Assembly: GCA_003151335.1 (NCBI GenBank)
Contig: PLXE01000108.1
Coordinates: forward strand, 62,001 to 126,000
DNA length: 64,000 nt
From: Acidobacteriaceae bacterium
GTDB lineage: Bacteria > Acidobacteriota > Terriglobia > Terriglobales > Acidobacteriaceae
Reading direction: 5' to 3'
Shown: one piece after another, positions 18,877 through 64,000 of the stretch
Layout of the letters: each line of letters begins with the position of its first letter
How positions within the stretch are numbered: position 1 is the stretch's first letter
Notes under the pieces: generated by a model
The model's database searches: none
The model's input: the letters and a program-made list of their open reading frames with translations, nothing else
What the model was told of the DNA's origin: nothing
Made by a program: the position numbers and the translations under genes

Positions 18877-20532
18877 ATGCCAGACATTAAGAAACCCATA
18901 TTCGTAGGCGGCGGTAACGGGAGCCCGGTCGGCACCCAGGATGAAGTCGAGCACGGCAAAGAACTGGCGCAGCGCTACCGTTGCGAGTTCGTGGACCTGA
19001 AGAACTTTCACATTCAGCACGAACTGTTCCGCAAGATTCCGGTGGACTTGATGTTCCGCTACAACTTCGTGCCCTTGGAGGACAAACCCGATGGCCGGCT
19101 GGTGATTGCTATCGCCGATCCCAGCCAGTTGATGATGATCGACGAAATCGGCCTGCTACTGGGGCGGCGCATCACCACCAAGGTAGCCAGCCTGTCGCAG
19201 ATCAGCGACATCCTGAAAAAGACGGAGCAGTCGCAACGCGTGCTGGAGGAAGCCAGCGAAGGCTTCGCGCTGGACGTGATTGTCGAAGACGAAAATTCCG
19301 ACGAGACCATCTCCTTTGAGAAGCTGACGGCCGAGGCCGACATCAGCCCCATCATCCGGCTGGTGGACACCACCATCTTTACCGCGTTGCAGCGGCGTGC
19401 CAGCGATATCCACATCGAGACGCGCGACGACTCGGTGGTCATCAAGTACCGCATTGACGGCGTGCTGCAACAGGCCATGCAGCCCATCGCCAGGGAGCAC
19501 CACTCCACCATCATCTCGCGCATCAAGGTCATGAGCGAGCTGGACATCTCCGAGCGCCGGGTGCCGCAGGACGGGCGTTTTCGGGTGCGCTATCTTGGCC
19601 GCTTCATCGACTTCCGCGTTTCCATCATGCCCTCGATTCACGGCGAAGACGCGGTGCTGCGCGTGCTCGACAAAGAGTCGATGAGCGAGAAGTTCCACAA
19701 GCTGACCCTCGACGTGGTCGGTTTCAGCGACGAAGACCTGCGCAAGTTCCGCCGCTACATCAAGGAGCCGTACGGCATGGTGCTGGTCACCGGACCGACG
19801 GGCTCGGGCAAGACCACCACGCTGTACGCCGCGCTGAACGAGATCAAGAGCGACGAAGACAAGCTGATCACCATCGAAGACCCGGTCGAATACCAGATTC
19901 GCGGCATCACCCAGATTCCGGTGAACGAGAAAAAGGGGCTGACCTTTGCCCGCGGTTTGCGCTCCATTTTGCGTCACGATCCCGACAAGATCATGGTGGG
20001 CGAAATCCGCGACACCGAGACGGCGCAGATTGCCATCAACTCCGCGCTGACCGGACACCTGGTGTTCACCACCGTCCACGCCAACAACGTGGTCGACGTG
20101 CTGGGCCGCTTCCTCAATATGGGAGTCGAGGCCTACAACTTCATTTCGGCGCTCAACTGCATTCTGGCGCAACGGCTGGTGCGAGTGATCTGCGAGTTCT
20201 GCAAGAAAGAGGTCCATTATTCCGACGAAGAGTTGGAGGCCAGCGGTTTGAATCCGCAAGAATGGGTGGGCATCCCGTTCTATGAAGGAGAGGGTTGCAT
20301 CGAGTGCTCGGACACCGGCTTCCGCGGACGGACCGCGATCCACGAATTGCTGGAGTTGACCGACAACGTGCGCGAGATGATTCTGTCGAAGAAGCCCAGC
20401 AGCGAGATTCGCCGCGCCGCCAAGGACGAAGGCATGCATTTCCTTCGCGAGTCGGCAATTGATAGAGTGAAACGAGGGGTGACCACGCTGAAGGAAATCA
20501 ACAAGGTCACCTTCATCGAGACGACCCGGTAG
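18877..20532 (+). CDS. pilB: Type IV pilus assembly ATPase
   Basis: A 551-residue GspE/PilB secretion ATPase, the hexameric motor for pilus extension. An N-terminal MshEN-type domain (about residues 20-140) precedes the ATPase core. The core has Walker A GPTGSGKTTTLYA (about residues 304-316), the Asp box ITIEDPVEYQ, Walker B ILRHDPDKIMVGEIRD and a His box GHLVFTTVHANN. A four-cysteine zinc module (CEFCKKE and CIECSDTG) follows, as in true PilB/GspE proteins rather than PilT. AAAAGG precedes ATG 18877. It is encoded between pilC and pilM. Confidence 0.95.
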   Translation: MPDIKKPIFVGGGNGSPVGTQDEVEHGKELAQRYRCEFVDLKNFHIQHELFRKIPVDLMFRYNFVPLEDKPDGRLVIAIADPSQLMMIDEIGLLLGRRITTKVASLSQISDILKKTEQSQRVLEEASEGFALDVIVEDENSDETISFEKLTAEADISPIIRLVDTTIFTALQRRASDIHIETRDDSVVIKYRIDGVLQQAMQPIAREHHSTIISRIKVMSELDISERRVPQDGRFRVRYLGRFIDFRVSIMPSIHGEDAVLRVLDKESMSEKFHKLTLDVVGFSDEDLRKFRRYIKEPYGMVLVTGPTGSGKTTTLYAALNEIKSDEDKLITIEDPVEYQIRGITQIPVNEKKGLTFARGLRSILRHDPDKIMVGEIRDTETAQIAINSALTGHLVFTTVHANNVVDVLGRFLNMGVEAYNFISALNCILAQRLVRVICEFCKKEVHYSDEELEASGLNPQEWVGIPFYEGEGCIECSDTGFRGRTAIHELLELTDNVREMILSKKPSSEIRRAAKDEGMHFLRESAIDRVKRGVTTLKEINKVTFIETTR

Positions 20533-20536
20533 GAAG

Positions 20537-20672
20537 CACTTAGCACTTAGCAACCAGCCGTTAGCAGTTAGTAACTGACTACTGGCCACTGGCAACTGGC
20601 AACTGACTACTGCCTCTGTCATCCTGAGCGAGGGAGATCGCCGCGGCGACCGACGAGTCGAAGGACCCCTAT
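20537..20672. repeat. Short repeats followed by a dispersed TGTCATCCTGAGCGA element
   Basis: Bases 20537-20612 are CACTTAG/GTTAG/CTGACTACTGGCC-type short repeats. They are followed at 20616-20672 by one copy of a dispersed element that begins CTGTCATCCTGAGCGAGG, has the palindromic core GATCGCCGCGGCGACC and ends GTCGAAGGACCCCTAT. Related copies are at 52061-52118, 52178-52221 (opposite strand) and, within a coding region, 62968-63013. Confidence 0.75.
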
Positions 20673-20752
20673 TGTGGCAGGACTGTTTGCTCGGTCTTGT
20701 CCGAGAGTGCGGCGTGGTAGAAATTTTCCGCTCCGCTCTATCGAAAATCACC

Positions 20753-20793
20753 GAAACTTGAAACTCGCAACTCGAAACTCGAAACTCGAAACT
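20753..20793. repeat. CGAAACT tandem repeat abutting pilM
   Basis: Five or six imperfect GAAACTC/CGAAACT units run to the base before the pilM start codon and occupy the place where a Shine-Dalgarno sequence would lie. Confidence 0.6.
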
Positions 20794-20794
20794 G

Positions 20795-21682
20795 ATGCCT
20801 TCCACCCACATTCCGCGGCCCCGGGTGGCCTGTGAGATAAGCGCCGAGCGCGTGGTGGCCGGCCGCGCCGGGGAAGGCGCGCAGACTCTGGAAGCAGCCT
20901 CCGCCCGGGCCATTCCCGACGGGGCACTCGTGCCGGGGCTGCAGCAGGCAAACGTTGCCGCCCGCGAGGCGCTGGTGGCGGCGCTGCGCGATGCCTTGTC
21001 GGCCGTGGCGGGACGTTCCCGCGATATCTGCCTGGTGATTCCCGACGCTACCACCCGCATCATGCTGCTGGATTTCGACACGCTGCCGGCCAAACCGGAG
21101 GAAGCGGATGCGGTGGTGCGCTTCCGCCTGAAGAAATCGCTGCCCTTCGAAGTGGAGCACTCGGCGGTGTCCTTCGATCGCCAGGGGACCGCGGACCCGG
21201 TCAGGCTGGTTGCGGCGGTGACGCCGCGCAATGTTCTGGAGGAATACGAATCGCTGGTCCGCGAAGCTGGCTACAATCCCGGTGCGGTGGTGCCTTCCAT
21301 GATTGCCGCTCTCGGCGTGGTGGATGGTTCGCGTCCCACCATGGTCATCAAGGTGGAACGGGGAACCACCACCTTCGCCATTGTGGACAATAACCAACTG
21401 CTGCTGCATCGCGCGCTGGAAAACGGCGGCTCGCTGGTCAGTGGCGAGTCTCTGGTGGATGACGTGAATACTTCGCTGGTGTACTTCGAGGACCGTTATT
21501 CGGTGGGCGTGGACCGCGTCCTGGTGACCGGAGTCGAGTCAACGCAGGCCTTGCAGGAGGCCTTGAGCGCAAATCCAAATATTCGCGTGGAAGAACTGGT
21601 ATCCAGTGGCAGAGCGGGCGCCGCCATCGGCAACGTACCTCGCTCGATGCTCGCCGCAGTTGTGGGAGCGCTGGTGTCCTGA
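20795..21682 (+). CDS. pilM: Type IV pilus assembly protein PilM-like
   Basis: A 295-residue actin-like (FtsA fold) protein expected on the cytoplasmic side of the pilus alignment complex, where PilM binds the PilN N-terminus. Visible features are the phosphate-binding-like opening PRVACEISAERVVAGRAG, SRDICLVIPDATTRIMLLDFDTLP, and the glycine-rich C-terminal region. It is shorter than classical PilM (about 350 residues). The assignment rests on fold-like motifs and position before pilN-pilO-pilP. The stop codon overlaps the pilN start (TGATG). No Shine-Dalgarno sequence is seen, because a CGAAACT repeat fills that position. Confidence 0.8.
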   Translation: MPSTHIPRPRVACEISAERVVAGRAGEGAQTLEAASARAIPDGALVPGLQQANVAAREALVAALRDALSAVAGRSRDICLVIPDATTRIMLLDFDTLPAKPEEADAVVRFRLKKSLPFEVEHSAVSFDRQGTADPVRLVAAVTPRNVLEEYESLVREAGYNPGAVVPSMIAALGVVDGSRPTMVIKVERGTTTFAIVDNNQLLLHRALENGGSLVSGESLVDDVNTSLVYFEDRYSVGVDRVLVTGVESTQALQEALSANPNIRVEELVSSGRAGAAIGNVPRSMLAAVVGALVS

Positions 21683-52060: not shown

Positions 52061-52221
52061 CTGTCATCCTGAGCGAGGAGGTCGCCGTGGCGACCGACGA
52101 GTCGAAGGACCCCTATAGTAGCGAGAAATCACAGCGGTGCAGCACAGCAACAGGCTTGAGATTCCTGGCAGGCAGAGGGATCCTTCGACTCCTCACTACG
52201 CTCGTCGCTCAGGATGACAGA
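52061..52221. repeat. Inverted pair of dispersed TGTCATCCTGAGCGA elements
   Basis: One copy at 52061-52118 (CTGTCATCCTGAGCGAGG to GTCGAAGGACCCCTATA) faces a second at 52178-52221 on the opposite strand (GGATCCTTCGACTCCTC to GCTCAGGATGACAG). The second lacks the GGTCGCCGCGGCGACC-type core and has CTACGCTCGT instead. Together they can fold into a long hairpin between fur and the reductase gene. Confidence 0.75.
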
Positions 52222-62149: not shown

Positions 62150-64000
62150 ATGGGAGCTTCCACTATCGCTACTCGGGCACGGCCATCCAACTCTAAATTC
62201 ATCTTTCGCGCGGTCGTGGGAGTGCTGCTCCTCCTGCTGATCATCTTCCTCGCCTTCGACTTCTGGTTTTATCGGGCGGTGCGGGCGGCGCTGCCGCAGG
62301 TGGATGGCACGGTCCGCCTTTCCGGCCTGGCAAGCCCCGTCACCGTGACCTACGACGCGCTCGGGGTCCCCAACATCGCTGCCGCCAACTTGCCGGACCT
62401 GTTCTTTGCCCAGGGTTACGTCACCGCTCAGGACCGGCTGTGGCAGATGGACATGACCCGGCGCTACGCTTCCGGCGATCTGGCCGCCGTTCTGGGGCCG
62501 GAGTACGTCAAGCTGGATCGCGAGCATCGCATCCTAGGCCTGCGACAGGTTGCGGAGAGAAACGTGGCCAACATGGATGTGGCCCAGCTCGCCCACTTCG
62601 AAGCCTATGCCGCCGGGGTGAACGCTTACATCGCGCAGCACCAGAAAACTTTGCCGCTGGAATTCCGCTTCCTTACCTATTTTCCTCACGTCTGGACGGT
62701 GGAAGACTCGGTACTGGTGGGATTGTCGATGACCGAATTTCTGAACTACGGCCTGTACAAAAACGAGTTGGAGAAAGGAAAAATTCTGGCCCAGCTGGGG
62801 CCGGAGTTGACGGCCGACCTGTTTGTGAATTCCTCGTGGCGCGATCGTCCGCCGGGAACTGACACCACGTCCCTCGAAAACGAGGTTCCAGGCGAGACCA
62901 CTCCCGACGAGGAAGAAGATCCGGCGCCAAGGAAGAAGACCAGCCACGTTACGCCGGAAGAAAAGCAGGTCCCTCGGCTCGGTCGCCGCGGCGACCTCAC
63001 TCGGGATGACAGGACGGAAGACAGCCTTCATCCCGGCTCCAATAATTGGGTGGTCTCGGGCGCGCACACGGCCTCGGGAAAGCCGCTGCTCTCAAACGAC
63101 ATGCACCTGGACCTGCACATCCCCAACGTCTGGTACGAGGCGCACCTTACGGCGGGAGACTTCGACGTAGCCGGCGTGACCTTGCCGGGCGTGCCTTTCG
63201 TCATCGTCGGGCACAATCGCTTCATCGCATGGGGCTTTACCAATCTCGGTCCCAATGTCGAGGACCTCTACATCGAAAAGTTCAACGACAAAGGCGAATA
63301 CCTGACGCCGCAAGGTTGGGCGCAACCGGAGCATCGCAAAGAAATTATCCGCGTGAAGGGCAAGCCCGAGGTGAACGTGGATGTCGAGATCACCCGCCAT
63401 GGGCCGATCATCAGCGACATTATTCCGGGGGAGAAGCGCAAGCTGGCTCTCAAGTGGATCATCTATGACCCGCAGGCGGCGGGTGCTCCGTTCTTTGCCG
63501 TGGATTCGGCGAAAAACTGGCAGGACTTCCGCGCGGCGTTCTCGCATTTTGGCGCGCCGGGTCAGAATGTCGTCTATGCGGATGTGGAGGGGCACATCGG
63601 CTACCAGGCCACCGGGATGGTCCCGATCCGGGCAGCGGGCGACGGTTCGGTTCCCGTGCCCGGCGAGGACGACTTGCACGAGTGGACGGGATATGTTCCC
63701 TACGACAAGATGCCCAGCGTGTCCGATCCCGCTTCGGGGACCATCGCCACGGCCAACGGGCGCGTCACGCCCGACGGATATCCCTACACCGTGAGCATCG
63801 AGTGGGGTTCTCCGTATCGCACGGAGCGCATTTACAAGCTGCTAAACACAAAAAAGAAACTCACCCCGCCCGACATGCTGGCCGTCCAGACCGACATTGT
63901 TTCGGCGTTCGATCGCTTCTGCGCCGAACGCTTCGTGTACGCCGTCGATCACGCATCCACGGCATCACAGCGCGCCAAGTCGGCCGCCGACCTGATGCGA
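62150..64000 (+). CDS. Penicillin acylase family protein (3' end beyond window)
   Basis: At least 616 residues of an Ntn-hydrolase of the penicillin G acylase/acyl-homoserine-lactone acylase family, cut by the window end. A membrane anchor or signal (about residues 23-42) precedes the alpha-chain region (DGTVRLSGLASPVTVTYDALGVPNI, FAQGYVTAQDRLWQMDMTRR). An acidic spacer leads to GSNNWVVSGAHTASGKPLLSNDMHL. Ser297 would be the autocatalytic N-terminus of the beta chain. The spacer contains an in-frame copy of a dispersed intergenic repeat at 62968-63013 (residues about 274-288). Acyl specificity cannot be told. Confidence 0.92.
   Translation, partial: MGASTIATRARPSNSKFIFRAVVGVLLLLLIIFLAFDFWFYRAVRAALPQVDGTVRLSGLASPVTVTYDALGVPNIAAANLPDLFFAQGYVTAQDRLWQMDMTRRYASGDLAAVLGPEYVKLDREHRILGLRQVAERNVANMDVAQLAHFEAYAAGVNAYIAQHQKTLPLEFRFLTYFPHVWTVEDSVLVGLSMTEFLNYGLYKNELEKGKILAQLGPELTADLFVNSSWRDRPPGTDTTSLENEVPGETTPDEEEDPAPRKKTSHVTPEEKQVPRLGRRGDLTRDDRTEDSLHPGSNNWVVSGAHTASGKPLLSNDMHLDLHIPNVWYEAHLTAGDFDVAGVTLPGVPFVIVGHNRFIAWGFTNLGPNVEDLYIEKFNDKGEYLTPQGWAQPEHRKEIIRVKGKPEVNVDVEITRHGPIISDIIPGEKRKLALKWIIYDPQAAGAPFFAVDSAKNWQDFRAAFSHFGAPGQNVVYADVEGHIGYQATGMVPIRAAGDGSVPVPGEDDLHEWTGYVPYDKMPSVSDPASGTIATANGRVTPDGYPYTVSIEWGSPYRTERIYKLLNTKKKLTPPDMLAVQTDIVSAFDRFCAERFVYAVDHASTASQRAKSAADLMR
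62968..63013 (+). repeat. Dispersed intergenic repeat inside a coding region
   Basis: GGTCCCTCGGCTC, then the palindromic core GGTCGCCGCGGCGACC, then CTCACTCGGGATGACAGG, align with the reverse complement of 20616-20672 and 52061-52118 with a few small gaps. It is translated as VPRLGRRGDLTRDDR within the acylase spacer. Confidence 0.75.

What the first reader, a model, noticed from the sequence alone, without database searches (positions are those of the whole stretch)
62968..63013. A dispersed intergenic repeat is translated inside the penicillin acylase spacer peptide
The repeat found between genes at 20616-20672, 52061-52118 and 52178-52221 (CTGTCATCCTGAGCG ... GGTCC) recurs inside an open frame, in frame, 9 residues before the predicted catalytic Ser297. 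In characterised acylases the spacer between alpha and beta chains is cut out during maturation, so an insertion there would be tolerated. Rickettsia palindromic elements behave in a similar way. I know of no described case for this repeat family; that is a recollection, not a search.
Basis: partly seen in the sequence, partly recalled or inferred. Interest (0 to 1): 0.75.

Follow-up and report, generated by a model that had tools for sequence, protein, structure and literature searches.

The report
Genomic repeats translated inside an acylase
In a group of Acidobacteriota, short repeated DNA sequences that normally sit between genes have repeatedly landed, in frame, inside the one unfolded stretch of a penicillin-acylase-like enzyme that related enzymes are known to cut out of themselves, so the insertions may cost the enzyme little.

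Summary
Window 62960-63012 is a genuine, reverse-oriented copy of a palindromic repeat (family A). It has at least 39 other copies in the same genome (best 95% over 54 nt, E 3e-17) and is read in frame as acylase residues 271-288, just before Ser297. In a capped search of the whole 2466-nt gene against its genome it was the only multi-copy segment reported.

The finding is broader. At least 11 of 106 distinct acylases carry dispersed repeats of their own or a sister genome in this spacer. At least seven repeat families (A-G; F and G weaker) are involved, in four clades. One spacer has grown from about 53 to 199 aa with the frame intact. With profiles of A-E, 16 of 17 in-frame hits fall in the spacer (7% of the frame), none in beta. 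In two AlphaFold2 models of orthologues the only stretch below pLDDT 50 lies in the spacer.

Best explanation: recurrent, near-neutral in-frame insertion into a disordered spacer, filtered by selection for an open frame. Excision of the spacer is inferred from characterised relatives, not shown. In-frame repeats are known (RPE, REP, MITE); my searches listed no report of a self-processing spacer filled by many families.

The parts
62150..64000 (+). Penicillin-amidase-family (S45, Ntn hydrolase) acylase gene, window part; it continues beyond the window (821 aa in all)
   Evidence: Pfam PF01804, E 1.6e-210; full ORF in L009 8150-10615
62855..63037 (+). Spacer between alpha and beta chains by landmark (residues 236-296), variable; low confidence in models of two orthologues
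   Evidence: Alignment of 106 distinct orthologues; segments under pLDDT 50 in models of L045 and L040. The true alpha end is not known
62960..63012 (-). Family A palindromic dispersed repeat, translated in frame as residues 271-288
   Evidence: 39 other places in own genome at E <= 1e-4; consensus including the AGCAGGTCC end
63038..63040 (+). Codon of predicted nucleophile Ser297, first residue of the beta chain; His at beta position 23
   Evidence: Alignment to solved beta chains begins at 297; residues read
20616..20672 (+). Intergenic family A copy
52061..52118 (+). Intergenic family A copy, first arm of an inverted pair
52178..52221 (-). Intergenic family A copy, second arm of the inverted pair

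Best explanation
A dispersed palindromic repeat inserted in frame into the spacer between the alpha and beta chains of an S45-type acylase that is probably membrane-anchored. The spacer is unstructured and lies outside both mature chains, so almost any peptide there is compatible with folding and with self-cleavage before Ser297. Insertions that keep the frame open survive and those that break it are selected away. The spacer has therefore become a recurrent in-frame landing zone, with gains, nesting and losses, for at least seven dispersed repeat families in four clades of related Acidobacteriota. SHOWN: repeat identity, frame, recurrence, location in the spacer, low model confidence of the spacer. 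INFERRED: insertion as the direction of change, nesting and loss (my reading of an alignment), neutrality, autoproteolysis, and removal of the peptide from the mature enzyme. The confidence given is for the landing-zone reading; the first rival shares all of it except removal, so the two overlap.
For: Repeat identity and multi-copy status. Spacer inserts match repeats of their own genomes: L045, families A and B; L044, B and C; L042, B (queried with the L044 spacer; profile); L053, an 82-nt A-type hairpin; L090, D and E; L048 and L046 (queried with the L090 spacer; profiles D and E); L026, family G; L015, family F, weak in its own genome (best E 9e-7) and stronger in a sister genome. L011 was matched only to A copies of other genomes. 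Profile mapping over 106 distinct orthologues with A-E: 16 of 17 in-frame hits in the spacer (18,744 of 267,765 nt, 7%), 0 in beta; the seventeenth is at the upstream end of the stop-to-stop frame of L053. For family A, which was defined by intergenic copies, all 7 hits inside the coding part are in the spacer, though from few independent events. All 11 carriers keep one open frame from alpha through the insert to the beta end (L042 begins at a contig edge). With 0.56-4.5 of 6 frames open in dispersed copies, one event each of A, B, C, D, E and the L053 form would all be open and in frame by chance with a product of about 5e-7. Four clades, at least 5 state changes on a quick tree. Spacer identity 58% against 86-90% in the chains within the genus. 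Models: the only stretches of 3 or more residues below pLDDT 50 are 243-372 of L045 (Ser379) and 240-292 of L040 (Ser296). Different spacers use different families, frames and orientations (RLGRRGDLTRDD; VILSEAKDLL..LRFAQDDN), so the peptide itself is not what is kept. Relatives remove a 9-, 37- or 54-aa spacer (PMC3461476, passages).
Against: Processing was not observed. Solved entries titled as spacer-shortened or spacer-removed mutants, one of them in uncleaved form, suggest that spacer length can matter. A CxxC motif near the spacer end in 56 of 106 rows points to constraint there. Low pLDDT is partly expected where few rows align. Families B-G were found because they sit in spacers, so their bias to the spacer is partly circular, and the DNA searched was partly fetched because it matches these spacers; only family A and the whole-ORF searches avoid this. 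The window copy causes no net lengthening relative to L012. L043 (95-aa spacer) has no repeat that my profiles detect.
Confidence: 0.8

Rival explanations
1. The spacer tolerates inserts simply because it is a disordered linker; it is never removed and stays as a tail of the alpha chain.
For: Low-confidence segment in both models. Nothing here shows removal; in one expression host two alpha-chain forms kept 1 and 18 residues of the spacer (PMC2845550, passages).
Against: Characterised relatives remove the spacer; strong S45 homology.
Confidence: 0.3
2. The repeat-derived peptide has been domesticated and does something, for example tuning maturation or membrane association.
For: A family A copy, with variants, is present in all five members of one subclade.
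Against: Different families, frames and orientations occupy the spacer; cores differ between sister species; spacer identity is low.
Confidence: 0.07
3. Chance resemblance of GC-rich coding DNA to the repeat.
For: The repeat is GC-rich and short.
Against: E 3e-17 against the genome and 39 other places; no other part of the gene is reported as repeated. Supporting but partly circular: 5 of 530 control segments from the same genes hit the fetched non-acylase DNA, each once and weakly (30 more hit only a broken acylase), against 11 of 106 spacers.
Confidence: 0.01
4. Assembly artefact or decaying pseudogene.
For: Most of the named records are metagenome bins (titles).
Against: Frames are intact and chains conserved; carriers come from several isolates with at least three naming series (record titles).
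Confidence: 0.02

Closest known systems
Rickettsia palindromic elements (RPE)
   Same: Palindromic repeats inserted in frame within genes while also present outside them (PMC10969869, passages; PMC3733652, section 15)
   Different: RPEs are reported in many unrelated genes. Here one gene, and within it one spacer outside both mature chains, is hit by many families
Intragenic GTAG/CGTC-tagged REPs (PMC3733652)
   Same: Short palindromes inside ORFs; REPs in recB of two Xanthomonas species lie at about the same site (section 15)
   Different: No GTAG or CGTC in the family A consensus; several families in one spacer, some apparently nested
MITE or ERIC in-frame fusions (Delihas, PMC2759123; QMITEs, PMC5896051)
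   Same: Non-coding mobile repeats contributing codons to host genes (passages)
   Different: In the passages seen, not tied to a self-processing propeptide; no transposase or target duplication tested here
S45 penicillin acylases (E. coli PGA, T. thermophilus PAC, D-succinylase)
   Same: Alpha-spacer-Ser-beta layout
   Different: Spacers of 9, 37 and 54 aa in PMC3461476 against up to 199 aa, much of it repeat-derived, here

Membership tests
S45 penicillin-amidase Ntn hydrolases | Penicil_amidase domain and fold | tested here: met
   PF01804 E 1.6e-210; D-succinylase 7eby top fold match, E 5e-50, for the model of orthologue L040
S45 penicillin-amidase Ntn hydrolases | Nucleophile Ser at start of beta chain, preceded by Gly | tested here: met
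   Ser at the aligned position in 110 of 110 loci; Gly-Ser invariant in the 34-row alignments
S45 penicillin-amidase Ntn hydrolases | Autoproteolysis and removal of the spacer | not testable with these tools
   needs protein analysis
RPE-like coding palindromes | Palindromic dispersed repeat in frame inside a functional gene | tested here: met
   that the gene is functional is inferred from intact frames and conserved chains
RPE-like coding palindromes | Inserted in many unrelated genes of the genome | tested here: not met
   Sampled copies only. 52 copies in 40 own-genome loci: all 17 distinct through-frames of 125 aa or more lack a Pfam match at E 0.01. 75 copies in 60 loci of six other genomes: 3 through-frames of 150 aa or more, one with a domain, which begins after the repeat. 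Genes without a Pfam family would be missed
RPE-like coding palindromes | Sequence homology to Rickettsia RPE families | not tested
   -
GTAG/CGTC REPs | GTAG or CGTC tetranucleotide at one end | tested here: not met
   absent from the family A consensus, read by eye
GTAG/CGTC REPs | Linked RAYT transposase | not tested
MITE | Terminal inverted repeats and target-site duplication | tested here: inconclusive
   Inverted copies 100-200 nt apart appear often in the listed places and L053 carries both arms; no duplication examined

The most novel reading that the evidence does not exclude
A self-excised protein spacer acts as a safe harbour for mobile repeats: the enzyme erases selfish DNA at the protein level, so several unrelated repeat families accumulate and nest there in frame, a protein-level counterpart of introns and inteins arising without any splicing function in the repeat.
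Probability: 0.5. Interest if true: 0.8.

Novelty: new variant of a known kind. Interest (0 to 1): 0.62.

Why it matters
How palindromic repeats can sit in coding genes without harm is a question raised by the Rickettsia work. Here is a natural replicate series: one gene, one spacer, several repeat families, close relatives with and without them. It makes the idea that proteolytic removal neutralises inserts directly testable, and it would explain the odd spacer lengths of some of these enzymes.

Tried and rejected
Chance match: rejected by the genome searches, as weaker support. In one search, 35 of 530 control segments had a hit; 30 hit only L119, whose acylase frame is broken so part of the gene was left unmasked (orthologous matches, dropped from the count); 5 remain, each a single weak hit. 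The DNA searched there includes 100 loci fetched because they match these spacers or the window repeat, so the comparison favours spacers. One hit counted as alpha (L053 1698-1726) lies at the upstream end of the stop-to-stop frame and I read it as non-coding. L078 had one marginal spacer hit (E 7e-5) that I do not count as a carrier. Own-genome searches were made for 10 of the 106 spacers (window, L045, L044, L042, L053, L090, L048, L046, L015, L026; L042, L048 and L046 with a relative's spacer as query); the other 96, L011 among them, were compared only with the A-E profiles and the DNA already fetched, so 11 of 106 is a lower bound. L043 (95-aa spacer) was left as 'no repeat'; it holds a short A-like end not tested in its genome. 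L034 and L035, sisters of L026, were not searched with their own spacers. L118 was left out of the structure alignments because its frame holds a stop. Rfam on L044: 0 matches. Literature: no paper for TGTCATCCTGAGCG; for TCATCCTGAGC 28 papers, 20 listed, none of those 20 on bacterial repeats by title, 8 not seen. Searches on acylase spacers, acidobacterial repeats and acylase with mobile elements (capped listings of 15, 15, 5 and 10) listed no title on repeats in acylase spacers. Not done: RAYT/transposase search, empty-site comparison of intergenic copies, dN/dS, survey of other self-processing proteins.

Full report
What is there. The acylase starts at window 62150 and is 821 aa long. It is a penicillin-amidase family protein whose best solved sequence match is D-succinylase (fold search with the model of the 92%-identical orthologue L040). 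Ser297 follows Gly and aligns with the first residue of solved beta chains; beta position 23 is His. An N-terminal helix (residues 14-47 in the model of L040) suggests a membrane anchor (inference).

The repeat. The stretch 62960-63012 is a reverse copy of a palindromic repeat with at least 39 other places in the genome at E <= 1e-4. A search of the entire ORF against its own genome returns only this segment as multi-copy: 36 other places, all inside ORF nt 806-877 (40 of 96 candidates scored). It is translated as EKQVPRLGRRGDLTRDDR, residues 271-288. The minus-strand consensus runs from about TTTGTCATCC to GGGACCTGCT and carries neither GTAG nor CGTC (read by eye).

Orthologues. Searches in 150 genomes of the family and in the genome collection gave 110 acylase loci, 106 distinct by the sequence around the Ser. 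Spacer length, from the SWRDxPP landmark to the Ser, has median 53 aa and quartiles 49 and 60. Eight spacers are 82 aa or longer. Seven of these eight contain segments that match dispersed repeats; L043 is the exception. L045 (the L013 gene; 143 aa): families A and B. L044 (199 aa): A, B and C. L042 (106 aa): A and B. L053 (102 aa): an 82-nt hairpin of family A type. L090 (131 aa): D and E. L048 (82 aa): D; L046 (92 aa): E and a weak part of D (E 0.003). Among spacers of ordinary length, the window (A), L011/L040 (A with another core), L015 (family F, 11 other places in its own genome at E <= 0.01, 32 in a sister genome) and L026 (family G, a GTCGAC-type repeat with 49 other places at E <= 0.01) carry repeats. 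In all, at least 11 of 106 carry one; 96 of the 106 spacers were not searched against their own genomes. The spacer of the 78%-identical L012/L041 shows none of A-E. The window's repeat peptide resembles only the spacers of the congeners L013, L042, L044 and, more weakly, L011.

Turnover. In the DNA alignment of seven congeners I read B as inserted inside an A copy in L042, L044 and L045, with C after B in L044 and a second, weaker A copy in L045 (profile E 0.004). The window and L011 lack B but keep A with different cores, 3 nt apart in length, so the frame is kept. This reads as gain, loss and core replacement (inference). The tree, built without the spacer, places carriers in four clades with at least 5 changes of state (quick method, 22 open forks; it cannot tell gain from loss).

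Controls. Profiles of A-E mapped over the 106 loci: 16 of 17 in-frame hits are in the spacer (7% of frame DNA), none in beta, one at the upstream end of a stop-to-stop frame. Families B-G were recognised in spacers, so this is partly circular; family A and the two whole-ORF searches are not. Spacers hit the fetched non-acylase DNA in 11 of 106 cases and equal-length control segments in 5 of 530, after dropping 30 that hit only the broken acylase L119; part of that DNA had been fetched because it matches spacers. Those 11 are L010, L011, L013, L015, L042, L044, L046, L048, L053, L090 and the marginal L078, which I do not count as a carrier; L026 was shown instead. Elsewhere, 52 family A copies in 40 own-genome loci gave 17 distinct frames of 125 aa or more running through a copy, none with a Pfam match. 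In 60 loci of other genomes, 75 copies gave 3 such frames of 150 aa or more, one with a domain, which begins after the repeat.

Structure. AlphaFold2 models of L045 and L040 (34-row alignments; mean pLDDT 80.4 and 86.7) have a single stretch each of 3 or more residues below 50: residues 243-372, before Ser379, and 240-292, before Ser296. Low confidence is partly due to few aligned rows there.

Mechanism. On the reading preferred here insertion is random with respect to frame and survivors are in frame. Dispersed copies have on average 0.56 (C) to 4.5 (A) open frames of six, so open, in-frame insertion of one each of A, B, C, D, E and the L053 form by chance has a product of about 5e-7. All 11 carriers keep one frame from alpha through the insert to the beta end, with 523-550 residues after the Ser. 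Selection therefore seems to maintain the enzyme while ignoring the peptide: spacer identity is 58% against 86-90% for the chains, and different families, frames and orientations are used. Characterised relatives eliminate spacers of 9, 37 and 54 aa (PMC3461476, passages; see also passages of PMC2845550, and PMC11241749). Excision would make the insert nearly invisible to selection, but a disordered linker that is not excised would predict much of the same data.

Comparison with print. In-frame repeats are known: RPEs (PMC10969869, passages), intragenic REPs, including recB hit at about the same site in two species (PMC3733652, section 15 read), ERIC-type units (PMC2759123, passages) and QMITEs (PMC5896051, passages). 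One primary Rickettsia paper, PMC186582, was not held. My searches (most with capped listings) listed no report of repeats in an acylase spacer or in a self-excised propeptide; most subscription papers are not in the library.

Noticed in passing
spacer end of 56 of 106 distinct acylase rows, all within L049-L119: A CxxC motif lies within the last 12 residues before the nucleophile Ser in 56 of 106 acylases; 0 of these 56 are among the 11 repeat carriers, which are all in the other 50 (Fisher p 1e-4, not corrected for kinship). A disulfide next to the cleavage site may constrain the spacer.
   Followed up: partly
G000, e.g. C71:172005 and 172197; window 52061 and 52221: Many of the listed TGTCATCCTGAG copies come as inverted pairs 100-200 nt apart, as in a MITE or a REP dimer.
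   Followed up: no
window 20532-20795: The same intergenic gap also seems to hold short tandem-like repeats, seen as CQLPVASSQL- and EFRVSS-type peptides in antisense frames.
   Followed up: no
L205 1400-2671: A family E repeat lies directly upstream of, or at the N-terminus of, an inosine-uridine nucleoside hydrolase frame.
   Followed up: partly
L043 2676-2960: A 95-aa spacer with no repeat that my profiles detect; by eye it holds a short GGTCCTTCGACTCG end like family A. Not searched in its own genome.
   Followed up: no
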